Source: Phoenicibacter congonensis (lineage in GTDB: Bacteria > Actinomycetota > Coriobacteriia > Coriobacteriales > Eggerthellaceae). From it: a stretch of 64,000 nucleotides of DNA. Shown here in pieces: positions 4,635-45,599 of this stretch (position 1 is the first letter of the stretch; every line of letters starts with the position of its first letter). Below the pieces are notes generated by a model. That model did not search any database and was not told where the DNA came from. It was given only the letters and a program-made list of their open reading frames with translations. The DNA lies in NCBI RefSeq assembly GCF_900169485.1, contig NZ_LT821227.1, positions 1,364,001 to 1,428,000 of the forward strand. The letters run 5' to 3'. Made by a program: the position numbers and the translations under genes.

Positions 4635-5177
4635 TTAATTGTTGCCTGTGGTCCCAGGTTGAACTGAAGTTTTTGCCGCCGCAGTTGAAGCTTGTTGTGC
4701 GTGGGTTCTTCTTCTGGTGCGCTGTGTCTGCGGATGCGCCGCTGCACGGCCTGTGATAGGTGTTGCACAATATGGACAAACTGGCCAAGCTGGCTCAAGA
4801 GGTTTTCCGCAATGTGCACACATGTTCCTTAACTGTGTTTGACAATTTGGGCAAATGACATATGTGTCCTTGACAGGATATCCACAATGAGCGCATTCGC
4901 CATATTTCATGAGCTGTCGCTGTTTTAGCGCAACTTCGAGTTCTTGCTCATCGCGATCCATCGCCAACATCGGAGGGCGAAGCAACAGATAGGCAATAAT
5001 TCCAGCTCCCGGAACAAGCCCGACAATCATCCATTTAACTGGAGATGTGCCACGCAATTTTGCGTCTCTTGAAATCCAAACAATGGTTAGAGCATAAAGG
5101 CAAACAATCATTAGGACGACAATCGTAAACGTGACTTGCATTTGTGGCGTCCAAATCTGTTTCAAGATTTCACTCAT
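4635..5177 (-). CDS. Membrane-anchored double zinc-ribbon protein, function unknown
   Basis: 180 aa. Two hydrophobic segments near the N-terminus (about residues 15-35 and 47-66) are followed by a cytosolic part with two zinc ribbons: CAHC with CPNC at about 94-112, then CAHC with CPYC at about 119-137. This is the 'double zinc ribbon' pattern. The last 40 residues are a low-complexity Ala/Thr/Gln tail. Such proteins are common but mostly uncharacterised; the ribbons suggest protein or nucleic-acid contact at the membrane. It lies 97 bp upstream of thrS on the same strand. No enzymatic residues are recognisable, so no activity is proposed. Confidence 0.8.
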   Translation of the reverse strand: MSEILKQIWTPQMQVTFTIVVLMIVCLYALTIVWISRDAKLRGTSPVKWMIVGLVPGAGIIAYLLLRPPMLAMDRDEQELEVALKQRQLMKYGECAHCGYPVKDTYVICPNCQTQLRNMCAHCGKPLEPAWPVCPYCATPITGRAAAHPQTQRTRRRTHAQQASTAAAKTSVQPGTTGNN

Positions 5178-5257
5178 TTAAAAACCTTTTAAAACCTTTT
5201 CGAATTAACAATAAATAAATTCCTTAAGAATTCTAACACACGGGAAAATCAAGGACT

Positions 5258-5694
5258 TGTTGCCCCAGTGCAAATGGGGTCAGACATCAATGGGGTCAGA
5301 CATGATTGAAAATGTGTGTAAACTGCTAGTGAATACCTGTTTTTACAATGGGGTCAGACTTAATTGCTTGTTGCCAGTTGCTGCACTCTTCAACGCTCCT
5401 TTTCCGTAGGGTCAGACATGATTGTCGAATATCAATGAGAGACATGTTGCAATGGGGTCAGACTTGATTGTTTGTTGCCAGTTGCTGCACTCTTCAACGC
5501 TCCTTTTCCGTAGGGTCAGACATAAATGTCAAATATCGACAAGTTGCAATGGGGTCAGACATGATTGAAAATGTGTGTAAATTGCTGGTGAATGCCTGTT
5601 TTCACAACGGGGTCAGACATGATTGTCAAATATCAATGAGAAACATGTTGCAATGGGGTCAGACTTGATGAGACATGATGTGGTGTGGCGCAAT
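5258..5694 (-). repeat. Array of GGGGTCAGAC motifs between valS and the zinc-ribbon gene
   Basis: The 615-bp spacer contains no credible gene. It is filled with head-to-tail copies of GGGGTCAGAC on the + strand (read GTCTGACCCC on the minus strand), for example at 5276, 5288, 5349, 5454, 5551 and 5656. Larger units are duplicated as well. A block of about 50 bp that starts TTGTTGCCAGTTGCTGC and ends in the motif occurs near 5369 and again near 5472. A block with ATTGAAAATGTGTGTAAA occurs near 5304 and 5562. The mosaic of nested duplications points to repeated local copying. Confidence 0.85.
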
Positions 5695-5730
5695 AAAAAA
5701 GGCCAGACCTCAATGAAACGAGGTCTGACC
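5695..5730 (-). terminator. valS terminator built from two inverted repeat motifs
   Basis: On the minus strand, just past the valS stop, GGTCAGACCTC (5730-5720) and GAGGTCTGGCC (5711-5701) form an 11-bp stem with one wobble pair and an 8-nt loop, followed by six T (5700-5695). This is a standard intrinsic terminator. Both arms are copies of the array motif facing each other, the only clear inverted pair seen in the window. Confidence 0.8.
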
Positions 5731-5792
5731 CCCTAGGATTAGAATTTAGGCAATTAATTTAGGCAATTAATTGATTAGCCGATTTTGTCTCG

Positions 5793-13279: not shown

Positions 13280-13311
13280 TCGTGGGGTCAGACATAAATT
13301 AATTAAAGCTT

Positions 13312-13341
13312 AAAAAAGCCGCTTAATTGGGCGGCTTTTTT
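13312..13341 (+). terminator. Intrinsic terminator of sstT
   Basis: AAAAAAGCCGC, an 8-nt loop, then GCGGCTTTTTT forms an 11-bp A/T-flanked stem with a T run on both strands. It probably works in both directions. Confidence 0.9.
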
Positions 13342-13370
13342 GTGTTTGAAACAAGACAAGACAACTGATG

Positions 13371-13850
13371 GGGTCACAACTAGATGGGGTCAGACTTCTT
13401 TGTGCAGAACAAGGGGTCAGACTTCTTCGAAGCTAGGTGGGGTCAAACTTAGATCCGACCTATATCCAATACATAACGCAACTAGGGGTCAAACTTCGTC
13501 AGCAGGGGTTTCACTTAAAGGATATAAACACAAGAACACATAAGGGGTCAGACATAGAATTACATAGGCTTACACAGGTACAATCGCGTGTGCACAACAA
13601 GGGGCCAGACTTCTTCGAGGTTAGACTCAGAGGTTAACAAGGGGCCAGACTTCTTCGCAGCTAAGTTGAGGTCAGATAGCAAGATGTGGGGTCAATTACA
13701 TAGGCTTACACAGGTACAATCGCGTGTGCACAACAAGGGGCCAGACTTCTTCGAGGTTAGACTCAGAGGTTAACAAGGGGGCAGACTTCTTCGCAGCTAA
13801 GTTGAGGTCAGATAGCAAGATGTGGGGTCAAAGATGGAGGTTCAGACTCC
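13371..13850 (-). repeat. GGGGTCAGAC array with a 136-bp tandem duplication
   Basis: Copies of GGGGTCAGAC or GGGGCCAGAC, often followed by TTCTTCG, run through this spacer on the + strand. Positions 13558-13693 and 13694-13829 are two adjacent 136-bp copies. By eye they differ at one base (GGGGCC against GGGGGC), so the duplication is recent. Open frames seen across it (60-70 codons) are repeat artefacts with no ribosome sites. Confidence 0.9.
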
Positions 13851-14526
13851 GACCCCGCAGGACGAAGGACAAGGATTACGAGGAATTACAAAAACTGGCT
13901 CAAGAGTTGAAACCAACAAATCAAAAAGTCTGACACTACTTCAATCATTTCAATCGTTCCCAACCATTCCTTAGAAATGTTCCAACCCTGTCCAATTAAA
14001 ACAAGATAGACAGCCAAGAGGTCTGACCCTATCAAATGAAGCCCATCAAGAAAGCCAAAGAGAGCAAACAACAGTGACGCTACGAAAAGGGCAAGACAAA
14101 AGCTTTCCAGTTCTAATTAAAACTTAAGTCTGACCCCTTTTAAAATTGGTTGCACTACTCGCGGAATTAAGGCTAATAACAAGGATGAAAAAGTCCCTTT
14201 CGAACCTATCACGAAGAACTTTTAGCAAAGAACCTCAACAGAAATGTGATGTTTTACGATGATTTAGAAAAACTTTGCCTTTAGCGAATTTCTTTCTGTC
14301 CTTAAATAAAAGGAGTATGGAGGCCAAGGAGTATGGAGGCCAACTGGTACAAACATTATTAACGATCAGGGATGGATACGACCATACTCATTCTTCGCTT
14401 GCAATAAGCGATTACTAGTTGAAATAAAACTCAAAGTCATATACAGAAAAGCTAAGAGAAACAGGTGATTGAAAATATGTGAGGACGATTTAAGTTTCTT
14501 GCGGCATGGTCTTTAATAAAAAGGAC
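13851..14526. other. Gene-poor spacer with motif copies and decayed sequence
   Basis: No gene can be supported. Motif copies now face the other way (GTCTGACCC on the + strand at 14020 and 14128), so orientation switches near 13.9 kb. A perfect 16-bp tandem pair lies at 14311-14326 and 14327-14342 (AGGAGTATGGAGGCCA twice). A 61-codon minus frame at 13886-14071 has a plausible composition but contains a motif copy and lacks a ribosome site. Confidence 0.5.
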
Positions 14527-15293
14527 TCATATTAATGACACAACCAAGCGCCTGTTCATGCCGGTAATTCGTGAAATTTGTGAAATGCTTGAACCCATTT
14601 TTAGCAGCTTTTTGACCAATCTTCGAAGAAGTTTCTTCGAAAGCGATGGGACTCTACCGAGGTTCTTTTTCTTGACCATCTTCTTCACAATATCAATAGC
14701 CTGCAAGTCCGATAACTTCTTCTTAGGAATTACCTCGCATACTTTCTTCACGCTCGAATCCATTGGCTCATGTGCAACTTTTTTAGTATATTTAATGATG
14801 TTGTCGATACCCAGATACTGAGCTAAAATTTGACAAGCCTCAGCATCAAACTCGCGAGACTCTAGCGCCTTTAACGAAGACCAACGATATCTTTCAGGTT
14901 CTTTAACCATTCCTGCCTTAACAGGATTGTTGAAAATGTATGCAACCGTTTGCAGCATTTGCTGTTCGTCCATAATTGGCTTTGAATAGTAGCGGGAATT
15001 CCAAAGGGTACCAGATCTTGCGTATTTTTGATTAAACCATTTCACATAAGAAGCTCCTACAGATTGAAAAATGTTCGCGCATTTCGCAATCTCTCCATAA
15101 AAAATAGCGTGAATATGGTTAGTCATCAGCGCGTAGACAAGCAAACCATGTCGTTCTCCTTGCAGGCTTTTCTTAGGCATTGCAAGTAATACGAATAGTC
15201 TTCAGGTTCATAAAAAATCACCTGGCCGTTGTGACCTTTTTGCCCAATATTCAAAACGCGAATGGGCGAATCACATCGAGGTTTTCTTGGCAT
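14527..15293 (-). pseudogene. REP-associated tyrosine transposase (RAYT 1), frameshifted
   Basis: Y1/HUH single-strand transposase of the IS200-like, REP-associated family. The first frame runs MPRKPRCDSPIRVLNIGQKG to about codon 50 and hits a stop after CLSTR. A second frame carries on with YALMTNHIHAIFYGE, the HUH metal-binding motif, and AYIFNNPVKAG with the nucleophilic Tyr. Both intact paralogues (34998 and 58365) are continuous here. The shift maps to the T run of GGTTTGC (complement of 15141-15147): one extra T restores MVLLVYALMTN. Either a one-base deletion has killed the gene, or there is slippage on the T run or an assembly error. A conserved upstream block lies at 15346-15420. Confidence 0.85.
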
Positions 15294-16119
15294 GGGGACC
15301 CCCTTTAACTTCAAAAAGAATCAATAAGAGAAGAATAAGAATAAAAGTGAAGAAAAATAAGAAAGAACTGCCCATCAAAAGTGAACACTATGATGTTGAA
15401 CTAGTGAAGGACAAAATGAAATAAATGTAAAAACAATACTCTATCTGGTAACTTTACTTAAATGATAGACAGAGAAGCACATTCTATGAGAAGTAAGCAA
15501 TAACGGGATCAATAAAAAAAGTCTGACCCCTAATACCTGCCCCTAATACATAAAACTGCTACGAATAGAGAGAAACACTAAAAATGCATCTTACACTCGC
15601 TTTTCTTATCTCTGCAGAGGATGTCTGACCCCATTTATTGACCTGTTACTGAAGCAATGGAAAATCAATGCACTCAAACGATTTAAAGCGTGTGGCAAAT
15701 TCTAGAAATGAAGAAAAGAGAATAACAGGCCTGAACTGGCCAACTTTAACTCCTTTGTAATTGGTAATTTAACTATCTTTCATTTAAGAAGATTAAGCCG
15801 CCAGGCAGACGGCTTAATCCAATGCTAAAGACGACAGCTCTATTTATATAGCATTTTTCTGAATTCTGAACCAAACAGACATAAAAAATTAATTCTCGTG
15901 TCGAAAACAATTCGGACACACATTTTCAGTGGACATTTTACAAGCAATAGCAAAGAGATCTTGTTCAAGGATTGCTATTTTGACGTGAAGAAGAGCTAAA
16001 CTTTGGGAGAAATTGGAGACCATGTAAATGAAGTCTGACACCATTTGCATGGGACGCCAGTTTCAAAGGAACTCTGACCCCATTTATGGGCAGACCATTA
16101 TTAATGCAAGCAAAATAAA
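15294..16119. other. Spacer with RAYT upstream block, motif copies and a perfect stem-loop
   Basis: No gene is supported. Contents: the block shared with the other RAYT genes (15346-15420), motif copies on the + strand at about 15521, 15624 and 16073, and a perfect 10-bp inverted repeat GATTAAGCCG (15791-15800) / CGGCTTAATC (15810-15819) with a 9-nt loop. The stem-loop has no T run on either side, so it may be an RNA end or processing site rather than a clean terminator. Confidence 0.55.
15346..15420 (-). promoter_or_regulatory. Conserved upstream block of RAYT 1
   Basis: Begins 53 bp upstream of the RAYT 1 start. On the + strand it reads AGTGAAGAAAAATAAGAAAG, then CCATCAAAAGTGA, then TGTTGAACTAGTGAA. 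The same ordered elements occur upstream of RAYT 2 (35821), RAYT 3 (59192) and comEA (55130). In this copy the AGCCTA box next to the gene is degraded, in keeping with a decaying gene. Confidence 0.65.
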
Positions 16120-17052
16120 TCACTGGTTGCCATCAGTATAAAACCAAGAAACATTGTCCCCATTTTCCAAAACATAACCACTGCAGGCTATATTCGGGGT
16201 AACACCGTTAACTGCATAAAGCCACCCGCTTTTATCGCCATACTGTTTTTCAGCAACTCCTCCAATTGCGGCTACATAGATACCATAAACTGTGTTTTTA
16301 GCGTTAACAGAAAGCCCGCAAGCCATTAGTGCATCATAGGCAGTCGCACCTGGTTCAAATGTGAATGTTCCTCCTCCCGAGACACCATGTCCGTATACAC
16401 TCACGTTTACGGTGACCGCCTGGCCGTTCGAATTGTTTTCATCTACAGAGCCACCGTTCGAAAGAGTCCCGACCTCAGAGGACCCTGTAGCCGCACCGTC
16501 CACTTTAACATCTGCCTCAGGGTTACTAGAGTCAGAATTCTCGGAGTCAGTATCTTCTTCTGGGTCCTCTGACTCAGAGGGGTCAGACTTCGTTTCATTA
16601 ATGCCTTTTTCACCAGCACTTTGTACTTGGTTTGAATCATTGACACTTTCTTCCCCAGAGAAAACGTAGTTAATCGCAAAAACTGCCGCACATGCAAACC
16701 CTGCGCAAAAAATAGCAACTACTACCCTTAAAAGGATCTTTTTTTGCAAAGAAATTTTCTTTGAAGAGTTAGCGACAGAATCTTCTTCCAAGCTGCTAGA
16801 TAGTGCAACTGTTGTTGCACTTCTAGCAGCCTTATCGCACCCAACATCTTTATTGGCACTTTCAGCGAGCGATTCCGCAAAGGGGTCAGACCTACCATTC
16901 TCATCATCTTCTATCGAGTTGTCTAAAACTTCTCCCTCAATTGGTTCAGACACTCTGGTTTCTTCATAGATTCCAGACATCGAAGCGGAGCCCCCCTCTG
17001 CTAGAGGCCTCCTTGCAGAGGGGTCAGACTTCGTGTTAACGCTATCCGTCAC
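16120..17052 (-). CDS. Membrane-anchored DUF4430 (transcobalamin-like) protein
   Basis: 310 aa, GTG start. Residues 1-105 are Ser/Glu/Asp-rich and probably cytoplasmic. One transmembrane helix lies at about 110-132 (ILLRVVVAIFCAGFACAAVF). An acidic Ser-rich linker follows, then a C-terminal domain (about 215-310) with FEPGATAYDALMACG, KSGWLYAVNG and GDNVSWFYTDG, the DUF4430 pattern. DUF4430 is related to the C-terminal domain of transcobalamin/intrinsic factor, so corrinoid or other ligand binding at the surface is plausible but not shown. Three repeat motifs lie in frame (16579, 16882, 17020), all read as Ser-Asp-Pro. It starts 29 bp after the big surface gene and probably shares its cobalamin-riboswitch control. 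Confidence 0.8.
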   Translation of the reverse strand: MTDSVNTKSDPSARRPLAEGGSASMSGIYEETRVSEPIEGEVLDNSIEDDENGRSDPFAESLAESANKDVGCDKAARSATTVALSSSLEEDSVANSSKKISLQKKILLRVVVAIFCAGFACAAVFAINYVFSGEESVNDSNQVQSAGEKGINETKSDPSESEDPEEDTDSENSDSSNPEADVKVDGAATGSSEVGTLSNGGSVDENNSNGQAVTVNVSVYGHGVSGGGTFTFEPGATAYDALMACGLSVNAKNTVYGIYVAAIGGVAEKQYGDKSGWLYAVNGVTPNIACSGYVLENGDNVSWFYTDGNQ

Positions 17053-17081
17053 AATAATCCAATCGCACTACATTAAAACGA

Positions 17082-20000
17082 TTACAAGTTTTTCTTCTTC
17101 AGCAACCTGAGAGCTGCAAGAAGCAAGATTAGGAAGAGCACGCTGCCTGCAACAACTGAAGCTACGAAAACGTCATTAGAGGTACTAGCAGGGGTTTCTT
17201 TCTTCTGAGAGCTATCACCAGAAAGGTCTGACCCCTTTTTAGAGGTTCCTTTTTTATCAGCAACACTTTCATCAGCTGCTTTCTTCTCCCCAGAAGCAGC
17301 CTTGCTTGACTGAATTAAACTTGCGCCGATTACTGCACGTTGCGCATAGCCATAATATGGAAACACTGAGGGGTCAGACTTCGTGGAACCACTAGTGTCA
17401 TCGCCGCTGTTGTTTGTGTTGTCATCATCTTTAACAGCCTTGCCAACGCAGAAAAGGTTACCTGAGTCGTTGATATAGTAGAGCGTTCCGTCTGTATCGC
17501 AAATTATTGGCGAATCACAATACTGGTTATTTCCAACGGGGTCAAACATGAGTGTGGCTTCTACATCTCCGACCCTATAACGATAAATTCCGCCACCCTT
17601 CTCATAATTGCCAGTCTTTTTGTTATAGCCATCAGCGCCGTTGACGGTGAAGTAAACAAATGTTCCTTCACTCTGAGTCGACACTAATGGTGCACCCTTA
17701 ACTCCTCCGCTCAGTAAAGACTGTCCGTCAGCCGATGTTACGAGCGTAACATGAGGATTGTCGGTCATAAAATCAACAACTGCTAGTGCAGATCCTCCGC
17801 GAATCTCACCTCCAACATAAACGCAATTGCCAACAATAACAGGAGTTGAGGCACTGCCACTAAAGCCAAGATCGAATGCGTTTTCAACACTAAGAGCCGC
17901 GTTATTAAGAGAAAGCACATTTAACTTGCCGTCACGGGACATCACAATAATGTTCCCACCAGGTCCTGCAACACAATCAGAGTTGACCAACTGCCCAAGA
18001 GAAACAGAGCTCAAAAGAGTACCGTCTTTATCGTTAAAAGCTTTTACCGTACCAGCACTCGTTGCAACAACCACACATCCATCTTTCACTAAAGCTCCGT
18101 TCCAGTAATAGCCCTCATTCTCGTCAACATCACTCCACGCCACAGCACCATTTTTCAAGCTTACTTTTACAAAATGACCATTGTTAAAAATTTTGTTTGT
18201 GTAGTCGACATCCACGGTTCCAAAATAGACATAGTCTCCTGAAACAGTTAAAGTTGAGTTTGACTGTGCCGCGCTGCTAAGCTCATCAGTAACCCAAACT
18301 GTCGTGAGATTGTCGGCCGTCAAAGCCTGAAGACGTCCTGTGTCAAGAGGCACTACAACAACGCCCTGCGAATAAACTGGTCGTGACGTGAACCCAACAC
18401 TGCCAGCAAGATCTGCGCTTCCAACCACATCACCGCTAGCCTTGTTTATTTTTACTAGTTTTCCATCAACGGCGAGGTAAATGTAGTCATTAACAATTAG
18501 TGGCTCACTTGCATTTGGATGTTTACTATCCGAGTAATCTTTATAGCTAAATTTCCAGATCTCCTTAGCATTTTCTACTGGGGTTGATGCATTAGAAGAA
18601 GCATTTCCACCGTTGTTATAACCTGGCCAACTGCTTTGCCAATCAGGACGAGGAGCAGAGGGGTCAGACTTGATGTTGTCGGTGTTATCCTTTTTCGTTC
18701 CGTCACCTTTGTGGTAGCGGAATTCTACAAAATCACCATCATTTACGTAATAGCCTGCTGCCCCGACGGAACTCTGAGATACACCATTAAGGTAGAATTC
18801 CCACCAGCTCCAGCTTCCGTTCACCTCTTCCATAGCAAGAGTGCGCCCATCAGGAAGTTTAGCCGAAGTGAGTCCAAGGCTGTTAGAAACCAAATCGGAG
18901 CATCCAGCTTTGATCATTATCTTTTCAAGGATAGTCTCGGCTGTAACGCTGTCATCATAATCTACAGTAATTTCGCTAAATGGCGCAACAACGATGTCTG
19001 TATAGGTGCCATCGGCATTCATGTCTGACACCCCTGTAACCTTCGCGGTTACTTTTAGATCTTTGCCAGCATTGGGATCGTCTGACCCCGTTGAGCCTTT
19101 TACAACAACCGTGGCGGTGACTTCCTGGTTAGCAAGTTTTGCATAAGTTGGATTGTCGGGGTATTTTTCTGCATAACGAGCAAATTTTTCACTTGAAAGA
19201 ACAGAAGTGATCTTTACCCTAGTGTTATAGACAGGCTGTTTGACAACTAGATTTTCATGTTGAACTACATTAGGCTTGCTCGATTTAAACAAGCGATAGC
19301 CTGCTGTCTCGCTTGCACCCTTGATTTCAACAGGGACAATGCCTGAGCCAGCAGAATCAGAAGTTTGTTTACTGTAGCTCCATGCAATAGTGCCATCATC
19401 TTTCAAATAGGCCTTTTGGAACGCATGTAGGTTCTCCGTAACTTCACTAGCAACCTGCCCGTCCAAGAGAGCTTCTGTATAACCAGCTTTTGCCTGCTCC
19501 ATAAGCGCAAGTTCAGCTTCAAGCTCCGCCTGATCTTGTGGCTCAATGAAATAATCTAGAGTCTTTGTTGCAGATATCTCGCTATTAGATTTATCAGTTA
19601 CAGTAACTGAGATTTTAGTAGCTGCGGCAGAGGTGCCAGACATTGGCTGATAGACTGCGCCTCTATAGCCATTGAATACAACGTCTTCAGTGCTTGCACT
19701 GAATTCAACCTTGTAATATTTGCCATCAACTCCAAGGTCAGAAGGACGAGGCATCTGCAAATCGTCTGTCAGCCCCTCATGATTTGCAACCAAGTCTGAC
19801 CCCGCGTACTTCACCTTATCGTAGGTAAAGCCAGTATCGACTTTTTGCTGTAAAGCCTCCTTTTCAGCAGCAACTTTTTCGGGATCCCCCTTGACAACCA
19901 AATTAAAACCACAATAGCCCGACACGCCTTCTGGCCCATCTTTAATCAATTTCAGTGTGGCAGTGAGCGTTACTTCACGGTCTGTCGCCGTTCGCGTGAC

Positions 20001-23000
20001 TTTCCCTGTGTAATCAGACCAGCCATAACCTGAAACCCAGACAGCTTCCTTATCAGAAGTCGACCATGAGACCTCAAACTTATTATTCGAACCAGCACGA
20101 TATGGCAAAGTCATGTTAGCAGTGACTGATTCTGCTGAATCTCCTTCTGCAAATCCAATCGCAATTTGCTCAGCTGCGCTATCCAACAGACTTTGAAGCG
20201 CACTTTCATCCCAAGCAACGCTCACCGTTCTGTCTGGTTGATAATAATCAACTTCATCTCCGCGGGTTAATTTAAAGACAACATCTGCATATCTCAACTG
20301 ATCAATCGAAAAACCACTGTAGTTATTAGGGTCAATCTTCAAGAAAGTTACAGTGCCGTTGGAGTCATCATGCGCATCTGATATTCCAACAGTGGCAGAA
20401 GGGTCAGTTTGCTTAAAGGCGACACCGCCTTCCATAACCTTAACGTCAACGTCCGCGTAACCGAGGTTTAAGAGCACTGCTTTGAGGGTATCGTTGACAT
20501 TTCCGCCTTCTGGGCTGTATTCAACACTGAGCTGAACATTTGCGTCATTGAGCTTCTGAATTGCCGCTGCAAGCGAATTCTTGCCCAGCACTGCTTTTTT
20601 AAATTGAGCTTCGACGCTTGAATTTCCGCTATTAACAACTACTTTTATGTATTTATTTGAAACTGAATCTGGCAAAGTAACACTTGAACCTGCCAAGCCT
20701 TCGATTTTTGTGAATTCCCCATCAGAAGAATCAGATGCAAACCACTCTACATCTACATTTTTAGTGACATCGATGCCATTTGTAGTAGAGCCATCGGCAC
20801 GTTTGGCCTGGACTGTTGCAGAAATGCTGTCGCCAGTGACAAGTTGCGTTGAATCATCGTTAGCTGCTGGATTTGTTATTACACGAAGTAAATCATATTC
20901 GCCCTGTGAACCAACAACACTTGAAGAAACCCACTCAACTGTGTTATCTAGGGCGGAGGCCGTGACCTTTAAACGCTTTCCGACAAGGGGGTCAGACATC
21001 GTGAGACTTCCATCGCTTGTATCAATGCCATCAGTGATTTCAGTCCAAGTTGCACCGTTATCAGAACTCTCATACCAAGCCATTGTGAGTTCCGCATCGG
21101 CAGGAACATCCTTTGTTGATCCAGCATAGGAACCAGGAACAAGCACACGAGGCGTCAGCTTTGACCCCACTTGAAGCAGAACATTTTTGTCAGCCAACTC
21201 AATTGCAGCTAATTTGTATTGACCCTTGAGGGTTACTGGTCCCAACGGATCTTTTGCGCTATATCCACTACCGTAAGAACTTTTCTTTTGTGTACTGTAG
21301 AGAGTATTCTCGCTTGTGACTTTTACACGAAGATATTTCCCAACATACGCTTCCTCAACGGTGTAGCTAGATGAAGTAGCATCAGGGATGTCTTTAAAAG
21401 AAGAATCGTAACTAGTATTAGTGTCAGAATACTGCCATTGATAAGTTACTTTATCAGTGTTATTGAGATATGAATAGCTTGATCCGTCTTTCTTGCGAAC
21501 CTTAGATTTAATAGTGTTACCAACACGAACACCATTCGTCTCATAGCTTCCTTCAAACTGAACATCATACAGCTCAACTTGCCCGGCCACAGAAACTGGT
21601 CCAGCCGCATAATATGGTTTTTTCTCTCCATATCCGCCGTCAGCCGTGGCAACAACATAAAAACCCTTGAGCGATTCGTCTACCGTAATTGAGCTGCTCG
21701 TTCGCCCTTCAATCAAAGTATTGCACGAACTTGCAGTTTTGGAAGTTCCTTTATACCATCTCCATTTGACATGGCTGTCATTGGTAACATCCCCAGAAGC
21801 AGCCTTTGCAGTCGCAGTGATAGTTGCACCGACTTCAACTTTTCCAGAAGAAGGGCTCATTTCGACAGAAGTCACGTTAATGGATCCCGCTGAAGCGATG
21901 AGCGCCCCAGTTGAATTAGTCAAAGATGAAGTGCCAATTTTCGAAGATACCAAGCACTTTAAATATTTCCCGCCTAAATCGTCAGAGAGCACAAGAGTCT
22001 CATTGGTCGCGCCATCGATGTCGGCGTAGGTTCCTCCTTTAGTGTCACAGCTTTGCCACTGGAAGCAGAGCTTTGAAGGGTCAACGAACGCACCGTAGGC
22101 ACCACCCTTTTCTTTGGCGCGTGCTTTCGCAGTGTCACCAACAGTAAACACGCTTGTGTTGTCTTTTATGTTGATGATAGAAATGGCCGATAATTCAACT
22201 TCGCCTGCAAGCTTAACCTTGCTTGTGGTCGTTTTAGAAACAGTGTTAACTCCCGCGGAAGCCTCCACCTTAATATACTTGCCAGAAAGATCATCGGTAA
22301 CAGAAATTGACGAGCCTGTCTGTCCTTCAATGATTGCGAATCCTGATTTTTGAGAGCTTGAAGAATACCAGGTGTATGTAATATTTGCATCGGCTGGCGC
22401 CTGACTTGAGTATGAAATATATGAAGTGGCTGTGAGCGTGTCTCCAACACTTGGAGCATCGCTGCTTAACTTTACATTTGCTAGCTCATATTGACCTGCT
22501 CCTAAAACTGATCCAGGAATGTAGTTGGCATTAAAAGACCCATCATATGTTGACGCGGGTGCAAAATAATCTTTTCCGCCTGCGTTAACTTTGCAGATTA
22601 TATATTTTCCTGCCATGTCAGACGTAACAGTAAGCGACTGATCATGACCCAGCTCTTGGGTGTAAACACTCGTCTCATCGCCCTTAGTATCTGAGGCAAT
22701 CCATGTGTATGTCCACCCGCCGGGGTTGACAACAGATTTAGTCTCAGTTGTTGGGTCACCCCAGTAGTCCTCGGTCTCCACCTTGTCGAACATGTTTGCC
22801 CACAGCACGTCGCCATTTTTAAGCGTGCCGTACTTTTGTGGGTAAGTTGTTGAGTAGTCCTTTGTCGACTGAATCAACACAAAAGCTTGGGAACTCAACT
22901 CAGATCCAGATGTCAAAGTTGCTGTATCAGCGGCACTTTCAGGCTCCCCTGCATCATTTCCAATAGCGCTTGTGTTGACATCCTGTTCGGATGTGTCATT

Positions 23001-23318
23001 AAGGATTGCAACCTCGGAATCTGAAGAGACTCCCTCGGCATTCGCTGTTCCTCCTCCTTCAACCTGGGCTTCTGCGGAAGATGATTCAGAAACAGGGGAA
23101 CTAACCGAGGTAGCACCACCTGCATCTATGTCTGACCCCTCTGTCGAAGAGTTCTGTGAAAGAGCAGCCTGCGAGCTACTAGATGAGTTTTGATCAGAAT
23201 CATTAGCAAAAACTAGATGTGGACTCAGAGAAATTACAAGAGAAAGAGCTAGAAAAGCTCTCAAAATTCTATGCCATAACGGCACAACATTCGATTTTGA
23301 GATATTACTCTCAGACAT
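17082..23318 (-). CDS. Giant surface protein: Ig-like repeats, DUF4430, PQQ-type propeller, C-terminal anchor
   Basis: About 2078 aa from the ATG at 23318; the open frame continues 67 codons upstream into the riboswitch and is not used. Order: signal peptide (hydrophobic ALSLVISLSPHLVFA at about 30-45), a Ser-rich linker, about eight Ig-like or BIg-type repeats with the recurring pattern VGDTLTA... YTWY... SGKYIKV, bacterial Ig-like segments, a DUF4430 domain (SWSWWEFYLNG, VNDGDFVEFRYHKGDG), then a beta-propeller with PQQ-like blades (GKLVKINKASGDVVGS, GRLQALTADNLTTVW). A transmembrane helix and the KKKNL tail close it. It is thus exported and membrane-held. About eight repeat motifs lie inside, all in frames that read Ser-Asp. 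Controlled by the cobalamin riboswitch just upstream; ligand capture at the surface is an inference. Confidence 0.85.
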   Translation of the reverse strand: MSESNISKSNVVPLWHRILRAFLALSLVISLSPHLVFANDSDQNSSSSSQAALSQNSSTEGSDIDAGGATSVSSPVSESSSAEAQVEGGGTANAEGVSSDSEVAILNDTSEQDVNTSAIGNDAGEPESAADTATLTSGSELSSQAFVLIQSTKDYSTTYPQKYGTLKNGDVLWANMFDKVETEDYWGDPTTETKSVVNPGGWTYTWIASDTKGDETSVYTQELGHDQSLTVTSDMAGKYIICKVNAGGKDYFAPASTYDGSFNANYIPGSVLGAGQYELANVKLSSDAPSVGDTLTATSYISYSSQAPADANITYTWYSSSSQKSGFAIIEGQTGSSISVTDDLSGKYIKVEASAGVNTVSKTTTSKVKLAGEVELSAISIINIKDNTSVFTVGDTAKARAKEKGGAYGAFVDPSKLCFQWQSCDTKGGTYADIDGATNETLVLSDDLGGKYLKCLVSSKIGTSSLTNSTGALIASAGSINVTSVEMSPSSGKVEVGATITATAKAASGDVTNDSHVKWRWYKGTSKTASSCNTLIEGRTSSSITVDESLKGFYVVATADGGYGEKKPYYAAGPVSVAGQVELYDVQFEGSYETNGVRVGNTIKSKVRKKDGSSYSYLNNTDKVTYQWQYSDTNTSYDSSFKDIPDATSSSYTVEEAYVGKYLRVKVTSENTLYSTQKKSSYGSGYSAKDPLGPVTLKGQYKLAAIELADKNVLLQVGSKLTPRVLVPGSYAGSTKDVPADAELTMAWYESSDNGATWTEITDGIDTSDGSLTMSDPLVGKRLKVTASALDNTVEWVSSSVVGSQGEYDLLRVITNPAANDDSTQLVTGDSISATVQAKRADGSTTNGIDVTKNVDVEWFASDSSDGEFTKIEGLAGSSVTLPDSVSNKYIKVVVNSGNSSVEAQFKKAVLGKNSLAAAIQKLNDANVQLSVEYSPEGGNVNDTLKAVLLNLGYADVDVKVMEGGVAFKQTDPSATVGISDAHDDSNGTVTFLKIDPNNYSGFSIDQLRYADVVFKLTRGDEVDYYQPDRTVSVAWDESALQSLLDSAAEQIAIGFAEGDSAESVTANMTLPYRAGSNNKFEVSWSTSDKEAVWVSGYGWSDYTGKVTRTATDREVTLTATLKLIKDGPEGVSGYCGFNLVVKGDPEKVAAEKEALQQKVDTGFTYDKVKYAGSDLVANHEGLTDDLQMPRPSDLGVDGKYYKVEFSASTEDVVFNGYRGAVYQPMSGTSAAATKISVTVTDKSNSEISATKTLDYFIEPQDQAELEAELALMEQAKAGYTEALLDGQVASEVTENLHAFQKAYLKDDGTIAWSYSKQTSDSAGSGIVPVEIKGASETAGYRLFKSSKPNVVQHENLVVKQPVYNTRVKITSVLSSEKFARYAEKYPDNPTYAKLANQEVTATVVVKGSTGSDDPNAGKDLKVTAKVTGVSDMNADGTYTDIVVAPFSEITVDYDDSVTAETILEKIMIKAGCSDLVSNSLGLTSAKLPDGRTLAMEEVNGSWSWWEFYLNGVSQSSVGAAGYYVNDGDFVEFRYHKGDGTKKDNTDNIKSDPSAPRPDWQSSWPGYNNGGNASSNASTPVENAKEIWKFSYKDYSDSKHPNASEPLIVNDYIYLAVDGKLVKINKASGDVVGSADLAGSVGFTSRPVYSQGVVVVPLDTGRLQALTADNLTTVWVTDELSSAAQSNSTLTVSGDYVYFGTVDVDYTNKIFNNGHFVKVSLKNGAVAWSDVDENEGYYWNGALVKDGCVVVATSAGTVKAFNDKDGTLLSSVSLGQLVNSDCVAGPGGNIIVMSRDGKLNVLSLNNAALSVENAFDLGFSGSASTPVIVGNCVYVGGEIRGGSALAVVDFMTDNPHVTLVTSADGQSLLSGGVKGAPLVSTQSEGTFVYFTVNGADGYNKKTGNYEKGGGIYRYRVGDVEATLMFDPVGNNQYCDSPIICDTDGTLYYINDSGNLFCVGKAVKDDDNTNNSGDDTSGSTKSDPSVFPYYGYAQRAVIGASLIQSSKAASGEKKAADESVADKKGTSKKGSDLSGDSSQKKETPASTSNDVFVASVVAGSVLFLILLLAALRLLKKKNL

Positions 23319-23339
23319 AAAAAAACCTTTCTTCCAGGG

Positions 23340-23580
23340 CAAATAGCGACAGATGAGCATTCCGACTTTGCCTGTGTGACCCAATCTGCATGCCTGCAGG
23401 AATCTACGAAGAAATTCACTGTCTCTTCGCATAGACAGTGAGAGCTTCGACCATGGGGAACAGCTTTTACGGTTACTGGTATAGCGTAGGATTTTCACCC
23501 ACATTCCCTCAAGCGACAATAATCGCTCGCGCCTTTCGCATGGCGCCTATCTGTACAGTGCCAAATGGTTAACCGATGCA
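23340..23580 (-). promoter_or_regulatory. Cobalamin riboswitch upstream of the surface-protein operon
   Basis: On the minus strand the leader contains GGGAATGTGGGTGAAAATCC (complement of 23489-23508), the hallmark core of cobalamin riboswitches. It is followed by ACCAGTAACCGTAAAAGC, a strong hairpin CACTGTCT/AGACAGTG, and AGTCGGAATGCTCATCTGTC (complement 23348-23367), which resembles the B12 box. It ends about 20 nt before the ATG at 23318, so translational control by hiding the ribosome site is likely. Boundaries are approximate. Confidence 0.85.
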
Positions 23581-24256
23581 GATGCAAAAAACAAGTCCAT
23601 GCAGAAAGAACCTGTTCAAAATTTTACTGGGATATTTGAATTATAGAACACTTTCTGCATTTACCATCATGTCTGACCCCATTGTCGGCTTGTAAAATTT
23701 TTATGTCTGACACCGCTGTCAATCAGCTAACAAATATAAAGTCTGACCCCTTATGTCCCCGTGGTGACCGCTGCATAAAGTCTGACCCCTTTTAAAGGAG
23801 ATCTACACGAACTGAAAAACCAGCATTCTTTTAGAAAAGAGAAATCAGAAACCTGTGTACTTCATGAAAGAATATGTCTGACACCAACGTAAAAGAAAAC
23901 TCCCCCAGTAATTGATTTGAAAAAAGCTTAATAATAAAAAATGATGTCTGGCACCATTACAAAAGAGACAGGTTTGCAAGAAAAGTAATAAGGCACTAAA
24001 CGCCAATAGAACCTTAAGAACAAAGCAAAACAGCAAATTCAATGAAACCATATTATCGATGTGAGTATAAACGCCTAGAAGCACGAACCATTAGTGACAA
24101 GTTGCGCACATCCAACTCATATAGAAACAATTCTTGCAAAAACGACAAGCAAACAGCAATTACCCTAATGCAAAAATTGATACATTTTTACACTAGAGAA
24201 AGGATCAAAAAAATCTTTTATGGTCTTAGCTTAGGACGCGTAATTTAGGATTGGGC

Positions 24257-24287
24257 GGCGGGAGGAACCTTTTCAGTGCCTCCCGCC
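24257..24287. other. Strong GC-rich stem-loop, role unknown
   Basis: GGCGGGAGG (24257-24265) and CCTCCCGCC (24279-24287) form a perfect 9-bp stem around a 13-nt loop in otherwise AT-rich DNA. No T run follows on either strand. Downstream on the + strand, AGGAG precedes GTGATGTGG and a 31-codon hydrophobic frame (to TAA near 24402). This could be a tiny peptide gene, but nothing else supports it. Confidence 0.45.
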
Positions 24288-24787
24288 AATAGGAGTAAAG
24301 GTAAAGTGATGTGGTGTTTAAACCAGTTGTTATTATACTTTAAAAAGATAATGGCTATCAATATTTTTTTCCTTTATTCAAATCTTGGCTTCCTCAGCTA
24401 AAAATAGCATTTGACCTTAGAACTTTTTGAATATTTCGATATTTCTAAAAATTGTCTGGCACCGCCTAATTATGTCTGATCCCACTGAAAATGTTTGGCA
24501 CCAATGCAAGGAAATTAATGACTGACCCCTCTGCAAAAGGTCTGGCACCAACGAAGTCTGGCACCAATGCAAGGAAATTAATGTCTGACCCCTCTGCAAA
24601 AGGTCTGGCACCAATGCAAGGAAATTAATATCTGACCCCTCTGCAAAAGGTCTGGCACCAACGAAGTCTGGCACCAATGCAGATAGTCTGACCCCAATGC
24701 AAGGAAATAAATGTCTGACCCCTCTGAAAAAGTCTGGTACCAATGAAGTCTGGCACCAATGCAGAAAGTCTGGCACCAATGAAGTGA

Positions 24788-24976
24788 AATGAAATTAAAT
24801 TTAAAGAAGGTAGTTTCATTCAATTAGCCGTTACAAGAGAAAATCTAGAAAAATATATGAGTTATGAAGAAGAGGCTTTAAAGTCTTTTAATCTAGAAGA
24901 AGATGAAAATAATGTAACAGAAAAACCACCAATGAAGTCTGGCACCAATACAGATAGTCTGACCCCACTGAAATGA
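24788..24976 (+). pseudogene. Gene fragment embedded in the repeat array
   Basis: An open stretch of 62 codons without its own start or ribosome site. It has normal protein-like composition: IKFKEGSFIQLAVTREN, then KYMSYEEEALKSFNLEEDE. It then runs straight into motif DNA (PPMKSGTNTDSLTPLK) and stops. It looks like a piece of a real gene cut on both sides by repeat insertion. The family is not recognised. Confidence 0.45.
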
Positions 24977-25108
24977 CACCAACGAAGTCTGGCACCAATA
25001 CAGAAAGTCTGACCCCACTGAAAATGTCTGGCACCAATGCAAGGAAATTAATGACTGACCTCACTGAAAAGGTCTGTCACCAACGAAGTCTGGCACCAAT
25101 GTAGATAG

Positions 25109-25299
25109 TCTGACCCAAAAGACATAAGTGAGGATTATGAGATTATGCGAACCTGTGGCGCGTTAATTTCAGTGATTAGTGATTACCGATATAATGTGTT
25201 ACGCAATACATTAATTAACGCAAAGCACGATCAATTTTCGTATTTGATTAAAGAAGTTAAAGTTAATAGCTCATACAAAATTTTTCTTGATAGAGCAGA

Positions 25300-25318
<19 letters not shown>
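25109..25318 (+). pseudogene. Second gene fragment, running into the tRNA-Val gene
   Basis: Open from a motif copy (read SDPK) through EDYEIMRTCGALISVISDY and NAKHDQFSYLIKEVKVN, ending inside the 3' part of tRNA-Val on the opposite strand (DGGRYKI then stop). It is protein-like in composition but has no start. It may belong to the same lost gene as the fragment at 24788. A gene end that overlaps a tRNA 3' end is what remains of some integrated elements, but no integrase is seen. Confidence 0.4.
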
Positions 25319-25374
<56 letters not shown>

Positions 25375-25417
25375 GAATAAATATTCGCTTTGCGCGAGAT
25401 GAAAATGCTTGAAAAGA

Positions 25418-25507
25418 TGGTGTCGGAGGCGGGATTTGAACCCGCACACCCGAATATGTGGGCACTAGCACCTCAAGCTAGCGTGTCTGCCGTTCCACCA
25501 CTCCGAC
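25418..25507 (-). tRNA. tRNA-Leu (anticodon GAG)
   Basis: 90 nt with CCA and a long class II variable arm (TGCCCACATATTCGGGTGT). Anticodon loop TTGAGGT gives GAG. Acceptor GTCGGAG pairs with CTCCGAC. It lies 43 bp upstream of tRNA-Val on the same strand, so the two are probably one transcript. Confidence 0.97.
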
Positions 25508-25574
25508 AAATTCAAACATATGTAAAAGTGCGAAAACTATTCTACCAAAGATTGAAGAAAAAAACGCTAAAAAT

Positions 25575-34112: not shown

Positions 34113-34128
34113 AGCAGCAACTTTCAGC

Positions 34129-34163
34129 TCGATGAGGTCAATGTTAAACAGTGGCCTCATCGA
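34129..34163 (+). terminator. Stem-loop after rpsT, probable transcript end
   Basis: TCGATGAGG (34129-34137) and CCTCATCGA (34155-34163) form a perfect 9-bp stem with a 17-nt loop just past the rpsT stop. No T run follows, so termination may be inefficient or factor-dependent. Confidence 0.5.
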
Positions 34164-34315
34164 CAAGCCTTCAATGAGTGTCTTTCTGCCTTAATGTCAA
34201 GGTTTGGCGGAGTGCCCGTTCGGAGTGCTCGTTGTCGGTTCTGTGATGAGTGCCTCCTTGCTGCTCGGAATTTATGTCGGTATTTATGTCTTCGGAATTT
34301 ATGTCTTCTTCGGAA

Positions 34316-34656
34316 TTTATGTCTGGCACCAGTGCAAGAAGTCTGACGCTAAAGTCTGATCCCTGTTTTTGGAATTTATGTCTGGCACCAATGCAAGAAG
34401 CCTGACCCTAATTCGCAGCGCAAAAGGTCTGACCCTGATTCGAGAAATCTGACCCCTGCTTTAAATCTAACACCACAATCTTATGTCTGACCCCAATACA
34501 AAAACTCTGGCACCAAGACGACCCCCAAAGCACATACCATCTTCCTGCCAGAATAACTTGCCTGCTTTCACGGCGAAATACAGTGACGAAATATAGCGAC
34601 TTACGTCTGACCCTGATGCAAAAAGTCTGACACTCGAAAAAAGTCTGGCACTAGAG
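34316..34656 (+). repeat. GTCTGGCACC / GTCTGACCC repeat cluster
   Basis: About ten motif copies in the 885-bp spacer between rpsT and RAYT 2, mixing GTCTGGCACCA, GTCTGACCCC, GTCTGACCCTGA and degenerate forms such as GTCTGATCCC. The rest of the spacer (34660-34997) is AT-rich and holds nothing recognisable. Confidence 0.8.
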
Positions 34657-34997
34657 AGACGCTTGGGAGACACTTGCAAAAAAAGCAACAAATAATCACA
34701 TAATTCCGAATTTCCCTATAAAACAAATCCCAAATTAACAGTAAAACAGCACAAAAATGACTAAAAATGACTAATTGACGAATTGATGAAAGTTTAATTT
34801 CTAATTTAAAGGAGGCAGGAAGAGAAAGAAGAATAAACAATTAAGGATATAAGCAAATGTAAGCACAGTGGCTGCTTAATCCTTTCACATGTAAAAAATG
34901 AAACATCTATTCGAATGTCAAATAGAGTGCAAAGCACGAAGTCAGATATCTGAAACGTCTCTCTTAGCTTTCCAAGTGGCTGAATTAACGTTTAAAC

Positions 34998-35768
34998 CTA
35001 CGCAGCGAGGACGCTAACTTGATGACGTGTTAAAGTTGTGATTCGAGAAATTTGACTAATGTTAGACCCAAACTTCAGGAGTTCCTTAACTAGTTTCCGA
35101 AGAAAAGACCTGGACAGCGTTGGGATTTTACCAAGATTCTTACTTTTAACAAGTCTTTTGACTGCATCAATAACCTCAAGATCAGAGGGTGTAGTGTTCG
35201 GAATAGCTTCGCACTGTTTCTGAACATCTGAATCGAGCGTAACCTCGGCGGCCTCGTGCGTATACTGCTTGAGATAGGCAATCGAAAGTGTCGAATCAAG
35301 TATCTCTCTTGCCTTTTCGTCGAAATTTTTTGTATCCATATCCCTAAACGAGGACCATCTATAGTTCTCTGCTCGCTTCACGATGCCCGCTTTTACTGGG
35401 TTGTTAAAGATGTATGCCGCAGTTTGCAAGAATTGCTGTTCGTCCTGGACAGGCTTTGAGTAAAAGCGGGAATTCCAAAGCGTCCCCGTCCTGCCATATT
35501 TTCGGTTAAACCAGCGCACATAAGTTGAGCCAATAGATTGAAAAACACTCGCACATTTTTCAATATCCCCGTAAAACAACGCGTGGATATGGTTTGACAT
35601 CAACACATAACCAAGCAGCACTACCCCAAATTTTTTGCAGGCATTTTGCAGGCACTCAAGGTAATACTCTCGATCTTCGTCATAATAAAAAATGACCTGC
35701 CCATTGTGCCCTTTTTGCCCAATATTAAGAACACGCAGAGGCGAATCGCACCTCAAAGGTCGAGGCAT
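34998..35768 (-). CDS. REP-associated tyrosine transposase (RAYT 2), intact
   Basis: 256 aa. The metal-binding HUH motif is H60-I-H62 in MSNHIHALFYG and the presumed nucleophile is Tyr119 in AAYIFNNPVKAG. These, plus GTLWNSRFYSKP, are RAYT/Y1-transposase signatures. Residues 160-256 are an extra basic domain that ends in an HTH-like ISQISRITTLTRHQV. ATG has AAAGGAGGGC upstream. Such enzymes act on single-stranded DNA and are thought to copy or move short REP sequences. No flanking IS ends are visible, so it is a domesticated-type single gene. It lies amid GTCTGGCACC arrays and is close in sequence to RAYT 3. Confidence 0.9.
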   Translation of the reverse strand: MPRPLRCDSPLRVLNIGQKGHNGQVIFYYDEDREYYLECLQNACKKFGVVLLGYVLMSNHIHALFYGDIEKCASVFQSIGSTYVRWFNRKYGRTGTLWNSRFYSKPVQDEQQFLQTAAYIFNNPVKAGIVKRAENYRWSSFRDMDTKNFDEKAREILDSTLSIAYLKQYTHEAAEVTLDSDVQKQCEAIPNTTPSDLEVIDAVKRLVKSKNLGKIPTLSRSFLRKLVKELLKFGSNISQISRITTLTRHQVSVLAA

Positions 35769-35806
35769 AATGCCCTCCTTTCCCTGTAAGCTTTCGTTTC
35801 AACATT

Positions 35807-35900
35807 AGCCTACTCTGAATAGTGAAGAAAAATAAGAATAAACAGGTTATTCAAAACCGATAGAACAGATGTTGAACTAGTGTACGAGGAAATGAAGAAA
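35807..35900 (-). promoter_or_regulatory. Conserved upstream block of RAYT 2
   Basis: AGCCTA (35807-35812; TAGGCT on the gene strand) lies 39 bp before the start. It is followed 20 bp further by TAAGAATAAA, then GGTTATTCAAAACCGAT and ATGTTGAACTAGTG. Order and spacing match RAYT 3 and comEA. TAGGCT could be the -10 box and the distal part an operator. Confidence 0.65.
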
Positions 35901-35966
35901 AGCGAAATTGGGCTTTCAACGAGGGTGTTTTAAGTGTTTAGTTGGTTGAAATTGGTAAAAAAAGCT

Positions 35967-36660
35967 ATGTCTGACCCATGTGTTGAAATACCCAAATCTA
36001 TGACTGGCACCATTGCAAATATGAGGTACTTACTCGAGACTTTTTAAATTTAAAAATTAATAAATTAATACTTGGCTATTTTTTAGAGAAATGAATAATC
36101 ATCAAAATCAAGGATACTCAGGTAAAACAACAAGGGAACTCAATAGTTACGGCGGCAGAAACTTAGAAGCAAATAGACAAAAAAGAAGAAGTCAACCTAA
36201 AAAAACAAGTGAACATTAAGCAAGAATGACCATTTTCAATTCATGTTTGACTCCATGGGATGGCCGTGTCTCAATCATAAATAGGGCTCAATGAACTTCC
36301 TTTACATACTGTGTGAGTTATATGTCTGGCACCGATGATTTATGTCCGGCACCAATGCTCCTTTTTTATGTCTGACCCCCGTGCTAGAAGTCTGGCACCC
36401 TAGCAAGAGAGCTGTTAATCGCTATTCCCACAACTGTTTTATTCTTCGAGTTCAAGTCTGGCACTGGTGATTCATGTCTGGCACCAGTGCCGGAAGTCTG
36501 GCACCAGTGCAAGAAGACTAGAATCGCTGTGTCTCCATCAAAAGTTGGCCTCATTGTAACTCCTTGACTTCCTGTGTGAGCTTTATGTTTGACACCAATG
36601 TTTTCAATGTTTTATGTCTGGCACTTTTATTTCGAGTCTGACACCAGTGTCGCATGTCTA
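35967..36660 (+). repeat. GTCTGGCACC repeat cluster
   Basis: About a dozen copies of GTCTGGCACC and its GTCTGACACC / GTCCGGCACC variants between RAYT 2 and the MBL lipoprotein gene, densest at 36320-36510. The copy-free island at 36060-36240 holds a 42-codon frame (ATG 36091 to TAA 36219; MNNHQNQGYSGKTTRELNSY) of protein-like composition but without a ribosome site, so it is probably debris. Confidence 0.8.
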
Positions 36661-36706
36661 ATGTGAGAATATCTATGCTTCAGAACAAATAAAAAAGGTC
36701 ACAAAC

Positions 36707-37888: not shown

Positions 37889-37935
37889 AAGTCCTCATTA
37901 TCATCAGTTTTTGAATTAAGAATCCTCAATTCAAT

Positions 37936-38524
37936 TTATGTCTGGCACTAATGCTTAATGTCTGACACCTGTGCAGCAAGTCTGACACCCTTGCAACGTG
38001 AAGGGGAAATAGTAACAAAGCAATTGGTTTTAGCAACGGTTTTTGGCGATAAAGAACAGTAGTAATTTAAGGCTGAAACAAGAAGAGAATTTATGTCTGG
38101 CACCAATGATTGAACAATTATTTCTGACTTCATTAATCTATGTCTGACACCTGTGCAGCAAGTCTGACACCCTTGTAACGTGAAGGGAAAAAGCAACAAA
38201 GCAACAGGTTTTAGTACAGGTTTTTGGTGATAAAGAATAGTAGTAATTTAAGGCTGAAACAAGAAGAGAATTTATGTCTGGCACTAATGCTTAATGTCTG
38301 ACACCTGTACAACAAGTCTGACACCCTTGTAACGTGAAGGGAAAAAGCAACAAAGCAACAGATTTTAGCAATGGTTTTTGGCGATAAAGAACAGTAGTAA
38401 TTTAAGGCTGAAACAAGAAGAGAATTTATGTCTGGCACCAATGATTTTGACACCAGTGATTGAACAATTCTTCTGACTTCAGTAATCTATGTCTGGCACC
38501 AATGATTTATGTCTGACACCTTTT
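37936..38524 (+). repeat. Three imperfect long repeats carrying GTCTGGCAC / GTCTGACACC motifs
   Basis: A unit with ATTTATGTCTGGCACTAATG, GTCTGACACCTGTGCAGCAA, GTCTGACACCCTTG, AACGTGAAGG and GTAATTTAAGGCTGAAACAA occurs three times (the last element at 38062, 38243 and 38397, periods 181 and 154 bp). It runs to within a few bases of the holA stop codon. The minus-strand 80-codon frames are artefacts. Confidence 0.88.
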
Positions 38525-38536
38525 AAAAGTAGGTGG

Positions 38537-45381: not shown

Positions 45382-45410
45382 TTAATTCTTATTATTTAGT
45401 GTGCTAGAAT
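45382..45410 (+). promoter_or_regulatory. Promoter of tRNA-Phe
   Basis: Extended -10 TGCTAGAAT ending at 45410, 11 bp before the tRNA 5' end; a weak -35 TTAATT lies 17 bp further up. Confidence 0.6.
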
Positions 45411-45421
45411 AGAAACTCCGT

Positions 45422-45497: not shown

Positions 45498-45599
45498 TTT
45501 TCTCTCATGTGTATTTCTTCTTTTCCTAACTCACAGTTTTTTATTGTGCTTTGATTTTCAATTCCATGTTTTGATTAGCTAGTTTCTTCACACATTAGT

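What the first reader, a model, noticed from the sequence alone, without database searches (positions are those of the whole stretch)
16579..23139. Repeat motifs inside surface-protein genes, always in the Ser-Asp frame
About eleven motif copies lie inside the two DUF4430 surface genes: 16579, 16882, 17020, 17226, 17370, 18660, 19023, 19080, 19794, 20987 and 23130. In one orientation they read Ser-Asp-Pro (often Lys-Ser-Asp-Pro-Ser), in the other Gly-Ser-Asp; the other frames, one of which gives a stop (GTC TGA), are not seen. They sit in linkers or loops. No such copies were noticed in the housekeeping genes. Repeat insertion thus adds small hydrophilic segments to exported proteins.
Basis: seen in the sequence. 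Interest (0 to 1): 0.75.

Follow-up and report, generated by a model that had tools for sequence, protein, structure and literature searches.

The report
Transposase-linked motif overwrites surface-gene codons
A short DNA motif that surrounds transposase genes in a small gut bacterium also sits a dozen times inside two neighbouring surface-protein genes, always reading Ser-Asp, and comparison with a sister species suggests that in the larger gene it replaced existing codons rather than being inserted.

Summary
All 11 listed copies exist, plus a twelfth at 19632; forward copies are 7/7 in the Ser-Asp frame, reverse copies 5/5 in the Gly-Ser-Asp frame. Codon shuffles give 0.04 on average, at most 2. 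The motif (A[AT]GTCTG[AG]C[AC]CCNNTG) belongs to RAYT-like (IS200-like) transposases. It fills spacers of one ~100-kb region and is almost absent from other genes.

The insertion claim fails where it can be tested. Against the same-genus genome G001, which has this motif form only at background level, 8 of 9 copies in the large gene align. Net length changes are 0, 0, 0, 0, 0, +3, +6, -6 nt (the last two alignments are loose). Four motif-bearing spacers, by contrast, are 0.55-2.7 kb longer than in G001. So in this gene the motif arose in place, as uptake sequences do; in spacers it came with inserted DNA.

G001's own RAYT carries a dialect (ATCTCTGACACC), with six copies in an adjacent adhesin-like gene, five in the Ser-Asp frame; insertion or duplication remains possible there. 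The agent of in-place writing is inferred, not shown.

The parts
17082..23306 (-). large surface-protein gene with nine motif copies
   Evidence: ORF; aBig_2 domain; copies
16120..17052 (-). small DUF4430 gene with three motif copies
   Evidence: DUF4430 54.3 bits; copies
16579..16588 (-). motif, KSDPS, in an unalignable linker
16882..16891 (-). motif, RSDPF, in a stretch without counterpart in relatives
17020..17029 (-). motif, KSDPS, in a stretch without counterpart in relatives
17226..17235 (+). motif, GSD on the gene strand; net -6 nt against G001, loose alignment
17370..17379 (-). motif, KSDPS; net +6 nt, loose alignment
18660..18669 (-). motif, KSDPS over a family stretch V-D/N-P-D/N-A-P-R-P; net +3 nt
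19023..19032 (+). motif (GACACC type), VSD on the gene strand; no gap
19080..19089 (+). motif, GSD; no gap (GSTGSDDPNAGK against GSTGQDDPNAGK)
19794..19803 (+). motif, GSD; no gap
23130..23139 (+). motif, GSD in an N-terminal linker, not alignable
14527..15180 (-). RAYT-like transposase next to the surface genes (217 aa)
   Evidence: Y1_Tnp 26.7 bits; REP_Tyr_transpos 58.3 bits
34998..35768 (-). RAYT-like transposase inside a unit found twice at 94.7% identity
58365..59135 (-). RAYT-like transposase inside a unit with a 91%-identical copy
23265..25574 (+). motif array upstream of the surface gene (24 copies by the pattern)
13280..16119 (.). spacer with RAYT-like gene and motifs; about 200 nt between matches in G001
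5112..5792 (-). motif-bearing spacer, about 0.55 kb longer than in G001
34113..36706 (+). motif arrays with RAYT-like gene, about 2.7 kb longer than in G001
37889..38536 (+). motif array spacer, about 0.65 kb longer than in G001

Best explanation
The motif is the short repeat that travels with a RAYT-like (IS200-like, HUH) transposase family in the genus Phoenicibacter. In this species the transposase genes and motif arrays occupy spacers of one ~100-kb region as net extra DNA (shown for four spacers against G001). Inside the large surface gene next to one transposase, the same ~16-nt sequence arose in place: existing codons were changed to the motif without change of length (shown for the alignable copies). 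Protein-level selection then kept only copies whose frame yields Ser-Asp, which is conservative for a fast-evolving exported protein (inferred; at several sites the G001 protein already has D, E or N). The most likely writer is short-tract copying from the adjacent arrays (gene conversion or template switching, perhaps started by transposase nicks at partial matches); this last step is inferred.
For: Clustering: 45 of 46 exact GTCTGACCCC copies lie at 1.350-1.432 Mb; 220 copies of GTCTGRCMCC against 4 reversed-control hits, while G001 has 4 against 4. Transposase link: arrays flank RAYT-like genes; two such units match at 91-95% over 2.0-2.5 kb, and in the pair aligned base by base the similarity stops at motif copies. 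G001's RAYT (51% identical) has the one-base dialect ATCTCTGACACC, 47 copies of ATCTCTGRCMCC in that genome against 0 control. In place: net length change 0,0,0,0,0,+3,+6,-6 nt at 8 of 9 copies, against about +0.55, +2.7, +2.7 and +0.65 kb for four motif spacers. Local source: CCC-type copies are 10 of 12 in the genes, 26 of 42 in nearby spacers, 13 of 118 further away (gene against far p=2e-7, gene against near p=0.3). ACGAAGTCTG occurs 7 times in 104 kb: three in these genes, four in the array at 24.5-25.1 kb.
Against: Only one same-genus genome is available (84% complete, 420 contigs; the orthologue is about 50% identical), so timing and direction of each change are uncertain. In-gene copies match the spacer consensus only from -2 to +13, and the two positions before the final TG vary, which fits a recognised site better than arbitrary copied tracts. 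Local type sharing could reflect local transposase specificity or a protein preference for Ser after Pro. Five other fast-diverging genes in the region (56-74% identity to G001, about 5.5 kb together) hold no copy at 0-1 mismatch, so relaxed constraint alone does not explain the choice of gene.
Confidence: 0.5

Rival explanations
1. Drive or selection for a DNA site: point mutations that create the motif are favoured, because the motif is an uptake sequence or a binding site of the transposase or a host protein. Copies accumulate where the protein tolerates Ser-Asp.
For: No gaps at the alignable copies; sharing confined to a 16-nt site with two free positions; precedent in uptake signal sequences (PMC1626085 section 7); a ComEC-like competence gene lies in the window.
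Against: 45 of 46 CCC-type copies lie within 82 kb; most copies are in spacer arrays that are net extra DNA; the motif differs between sister species; in-gene type follows local type.
Confidence: 0.3
2. Plain insertion of motif units into the genes, with length restored or hidden by later deletions or poor alignment.
For: G001's adhesin-like gene has five linker copies, some at the 33-nt array period; the DUF4430 linker copy lies where G000 has 8 more residues than G001; spacer arrays are net extra DNA.
Against: 0 of 8 alignable copies in the large gene show a net gain of 12 nt or more, and five have no gap within 10 codons; several sites keep conserved neighbours on both sides.
Confidence: 0.12
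3. Protein-level convergence on Ser-Asp-Pro or Gly-Ser-Asp, without a DNA cause.
For: Frame constancy; D, E or N already at several G001 sites.
Against: Same codons 6 of 6 and 4 of 4 times with rare CCC; the same 16-nt sequence in both orientations and in spacers; codon-shuffle null.
Confidence: 0.03

Closest known systems
Uptake signal sequences (USS/DUS) of Pasteurellaceae and Neisseriaceae
   Same: Short motif abundant in coding sequence that arose by substitution without gaps (PMC1626085 section 7, read; PMC1939737 abstract).
   Different: Here the motif is confined to about 100 kb plus small clusters, is linked to transposase genes, lies mostly in spacer arrays that are net extra DNA, and differs between sister species.
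REP/REPIN sequences with RAYT transposases
   Same: Short repeats arranged in clusters around IS200-like tyrosine transposase genes; transposase and repeat apparently coevolve (PMC2817692 abstract and passages).
   Different: No GTAG-type head, no conserved palindrome, arrays in direct rather than inverted orientation around two of the transposase genes, and copies inside genes.
Rickettsia palindromic elements (RPE)
   Same: Repeat found in protein-coding genes in open frames (PMC10969869 passages).
   Different: RPEs are about 150-bp insertions; these are about 16-nt sequences without net insertion in the alignable cases.
HIP1 of cyanobacteria
   Same: Short oligonucleotide at high frequency (PMC4390886, search listing and start of abstract only); presence in genes without insertion is recalled.
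   Different: HIP1 is linked to methyltransferases, not to a transposase; its genome-wide spread is recalled.

Membership tests
RAYT transposase (REP_Tyr_transpos, NF047646) | score above the curated cut-off | tested here: not met
   70, 68.8 and 58.3 bits against a cut-off of 80; Pfam Y1_Tnp is above its cut-off. RAYT-like, not a strict member of this model.
RAYT transposase (REP_Tyr_transpos, NF047646) | HxH metal site and catalytic Tyr (features recalled) | tested here: met
   NHIHALF and AAYIFNNPVKAG in the proteins; NHIHAIF and VAYIFNNPVKAG in the shorter one. Read by eye.
REP/REPIN repeat | GTAG-type head and palindrome | tested here: not met
   consensus A[AT]GTCTG[AG]C[AC]CCNNTG; no consistent hairpin in six stretches
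REP/REPIN repeat | RAYT gene flanked by two repeats in inverted orientation | tested here: not met
   copies in the spacers on both sides of the genes at 34998 and 58365 are all on the + strand
REP/REPIN repeat | repeat associated with, and changing together with, a RAYT | tested here: met
   G001 RAYT with dialect ATCTCTGACACC; other species' RAYTs often have other flank motifs
Uptake signal sequence | arises by substitution in coding sequence | tested here: met
   large gene only
Uptake signal sequence | spread over the genome (recalled) | tested here: not met
   45 of 46 CCC-type copies within 82 kb
Uptake signal sequence | promotes DNA uptake | not testable with these tools
   needs transformation assays
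Rickettsia palindromic element | in-frame insertion of a ~150-bp element | tested here: not met
   no net gain of 12 nt or more at 8 of 8 alignable copies

The most novel reading that the evidence does not exclude
A RAYT-like transposase system writes its recognition motif into nearby coding DNA by conversion rather than insertion, so a mobile element can diversify neighbouring surface proteins without changing their length or frame; the sister species has a parallel case with its own one-base dialect.
Probability: 0.2. Interest if true: 0.85.

Novelty: new variant of a known kind. Interest (0 to 1): 0.6.

Why it matters
Repeats inside genes are usually read as insertions. Here spacers of one region show insertion, while the large gene next to them shows the same motif without it, and a sister species has a motif dialect with its own transposase. 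This makes it testable whether a transposase-linked motif can spread by rewriting sequence, and whether it helps to diversify surface proteins.

Tried and rejected
Pre-existing similarity: G001 sites match the motif better than random in-frame positions (sum 50 against 31.4, P=1e-4). I do not use this as evidence for microhomology, because orthologous sites resemble each other anyway; 50 of 98 informative positions match.

Nearest-neighbour test: in-gene copies resemble the adjacent upstream array more often than distant copies do (0.39 against 0.03, 0 of 10,000 resamples). This is confounded by regional motif type and is treated as suggestive only.

GTCTGACCCC in G055 (63 hits for GTCTGRCMCC) is, in nearly all of the contexts fetched, the centre of a ~33-nt palindrome, not the same element.

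Generality outside the genus: in 13 RAYT neighbourhoods of other species I found 3 hits inside called genes: one is in the last residues of a gene, one overlaps a start, one is internal. So I found no support for in-gene copies there. Gene calls in those short stretches are rough, and 4 of the 17 stretches fetched were left out, as I saw no clear motif.

G001's second RAYT (C114) has another motif (CTCCGTCCCC); its copies inside stop-to-stop ORFs lie in mixed frames, and I take those stretches to be spacer. In G001 contig C333 a stop-to-stop ORF holds copies in several frames; I did not count it as a gene.

AlphaFold of 821 residues (2-row alignment) failed: mean pLDDT 43. Single-strand folding gave no shared hairpin. 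The literature search for the motif letters found 31 papers; I saw 15 titles, all on unrelated subjects.

Full report
What is there. The window is part of a 1.448-Mb single-contig genome, G000, in the same genus as G001. The G001 contig with the surface-gene orthologue corresponds to a public record labelled Phoenicibacter congonensis, family Eggerthellaceae. Two adjacent minus-strand genes encode a large surface protein (17082-23306) and a small DUF4430 protein (16120-17052). Twelve copies of GTCTG[AG]C[AC]CC lie inside them.

More than chance. Shuffling the codons of both genes 2000 times gave 0.04 copies on average and at most 2, against 12. In 104 kb around the window the 16-nt consensus A[AT]GTCTG[AG]C[AC]CCNNTG at 0-1 mismatch occurs 196 times in 25.7 kb of spacer, 10 times in these two genes and 3 times in 71 kb of other genes; the reversed control occurs 0 times. 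Among the other genes are homologues of lepA, clpX, prmC and holA (domains; gene names are mine). Positions outside the 10-base search pattern, A at -2 and TG at +12/+13, are kept in 11, 10 and 10 of 12 in-gene copies, as in spacers.

Frame. Same-strand copies are 7 of 7 in the TCT GAC CCC frame and opposite-strand copies 5 of 5 in the GGG TCA GAC frame. SDP is encoded by the motif codons 6 of 6 times and GSD 4 of 4 times, while CCC is 7.5% of Pro codons in the other genes. So the cause lies at the DNA level and the frame is filtered, presumably by the protein.

The motif belongs to a transposase family. It is concentrated at 1.345-1.448 Mb, 978-995 kb and 0-2 kb. Matches to the IS200-like transposase lie at 1.351, 1.379, 1.399, 1.423 and 1.447 Mb, at 989 kb and 1.013 Mb, and, with a stop inside, at 595 kb. 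The three in the window resemble RAYTs (NCBIfam REP_Tyr_transpos 58-70 bits, below the cut-off of 80). Two pairs of units, transposase plus arrays, match at 91-95% over 2.0-2.5 kb; in the pair that I aligned base by base the similarity stops at motif copies. In the sister genome G001, which has the G000 motif only at background level (4 against 4 control), the nearest RAYT (51% identical) is flanked by ATCTCTGACACCANTG, a one-base dialect with 47 copies against 0 control. RAYTs of other species of the order often have other short flank motifs.

Extra DNA in spacers, substitution in the gene. G001 is syntenic here; most of the orthologous genes compared are 74-94% identical, several 56-65%, and its 23.5 kb of syntenic DNA hold 0 copies of GTCTG[AG]C[AC]CC. 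From the ends of the BLAST matches, the gaps are about 630 nt in G000 against 84 in G001, 2935 against 199 (with a RAYT-like gene), 3002 against 345 (with a RAYT-like gene) and 919 against 266. Of three motif-free spacers looked at, one is essentially equal and two are about 100-140 nt longer in G000 (same call). In the large surface gene, by contrast, 8 of 9 copies align with the G001 orthologue and the net length change within 10 codons is 0, 0, 0, 0, 0, +3, +6 and -6 nt. Examples: GSTGSDDPNAGK against GSTGQDDPNAGK; LTMSDPLVGK against LTLTDALVGR; KSDPSAPRPDW over a stretch that reads V-D/N-P-D/N-A-P-R-P in several relatives. The two loosest alignments (17370, 17226) carry little weight; the ninth copy (23130) lies in a linker outside this alignment, and the BLAST alignment there has gaps on both sides. 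This is the test used to show that uptake signal sequences are not insertions (PMC1626085, section 7 read).

The small gene. Two of its copies lie in an N-terminal stretch without counterpart in relatives, possibly spacer if translation starts further downstream; the third lies in a linker that cannot be aligned reliably, where G000 has 8 more residues than G001. These three say nothing firm about insertion.

A second case in the sister species. Next to its dialect-bearing RAYT, G001 has a gene for a giant adhesin-like protein (open frame 3744 aa; Cna_B domains) with six dialect copies: five read V/L-I-S-D-T-S, some of them 33 nt apart, and one reads S-S-L-T-P. So the Ser-Asp frame recurs (5 of 6), with one exception. 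The 33-nt spacing equals a common spacing of the spacer arrays there, so insertion or duplication is plausible; the search found no G000 match to this protein with which to test it.

How it may work. In-gene copies match the local motif type (10 of 12 CCC-type, against 26 of 42 nearby and 13 of 118 far), and within 104 kb the 10-mer ACGAAGTCTG occurs only in three in-gene copies and four times in the array upstream of the gene. I read this as weak support for short-tract copying from adjacent arrays, followed by selection on the protein. Against it, the shared sequence is largely confined to the 16-nt site, as expected for a recognised site under drive. Relaxed constraint alone is not enough: five other genes at 56-74% identity to G001 (about 5.5 kb) hold no copy at 0-1 mismatch, where about 7.7 would be expected at the surface-gene density (hand calculation).

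Verdict. What remains unusual is one motif family that behaves as inserted arrays between genes and as an in-place substitution inside a gene.

Noticed in passing
window 51471-54002 (-): ComEC-like competence gene (Pfam Competence 151 bits, plus metallo-beta-lactamase domain), relevant to the uptake-sequence rival.
   Followed up: no
L074-L089 (G055): A ~33-nt palindrome (TTGCCTAAAAGGGGTCTGACCCCTTTTAGGCAA) dispersed in a genome of another family of the order; it shares the 10-mer at its centre.
   Followed up: partly
L045-L073, L103-L119: RAYT genes of other species of the order often carry their own short flank motifs, e.g. GAACCGTCCC, CTGCTGTCACC, CCGTGTCACC, ATTTGTCTCA.
   Followed up: partly
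L153 (G001:C114): Second RAYT of G001 with a different array motif, ACCTCCGTCCCCAATT, often at 33-34-nt spacing.
   Followed up: partly
window 45396-45501: 106-nt stretch in a spacer, 96% identical to G001, with a 73-nt part matching further G001 places; possibly a tRNA or other RNA.
   Followed up: no
L040 19327-19956 / L007: The contig ends inside a RAYT-like gene (open frame of 209 aa at 1447333-1447956 of the genome), so the assembly junction lies in a repeat.
   Followed up: no
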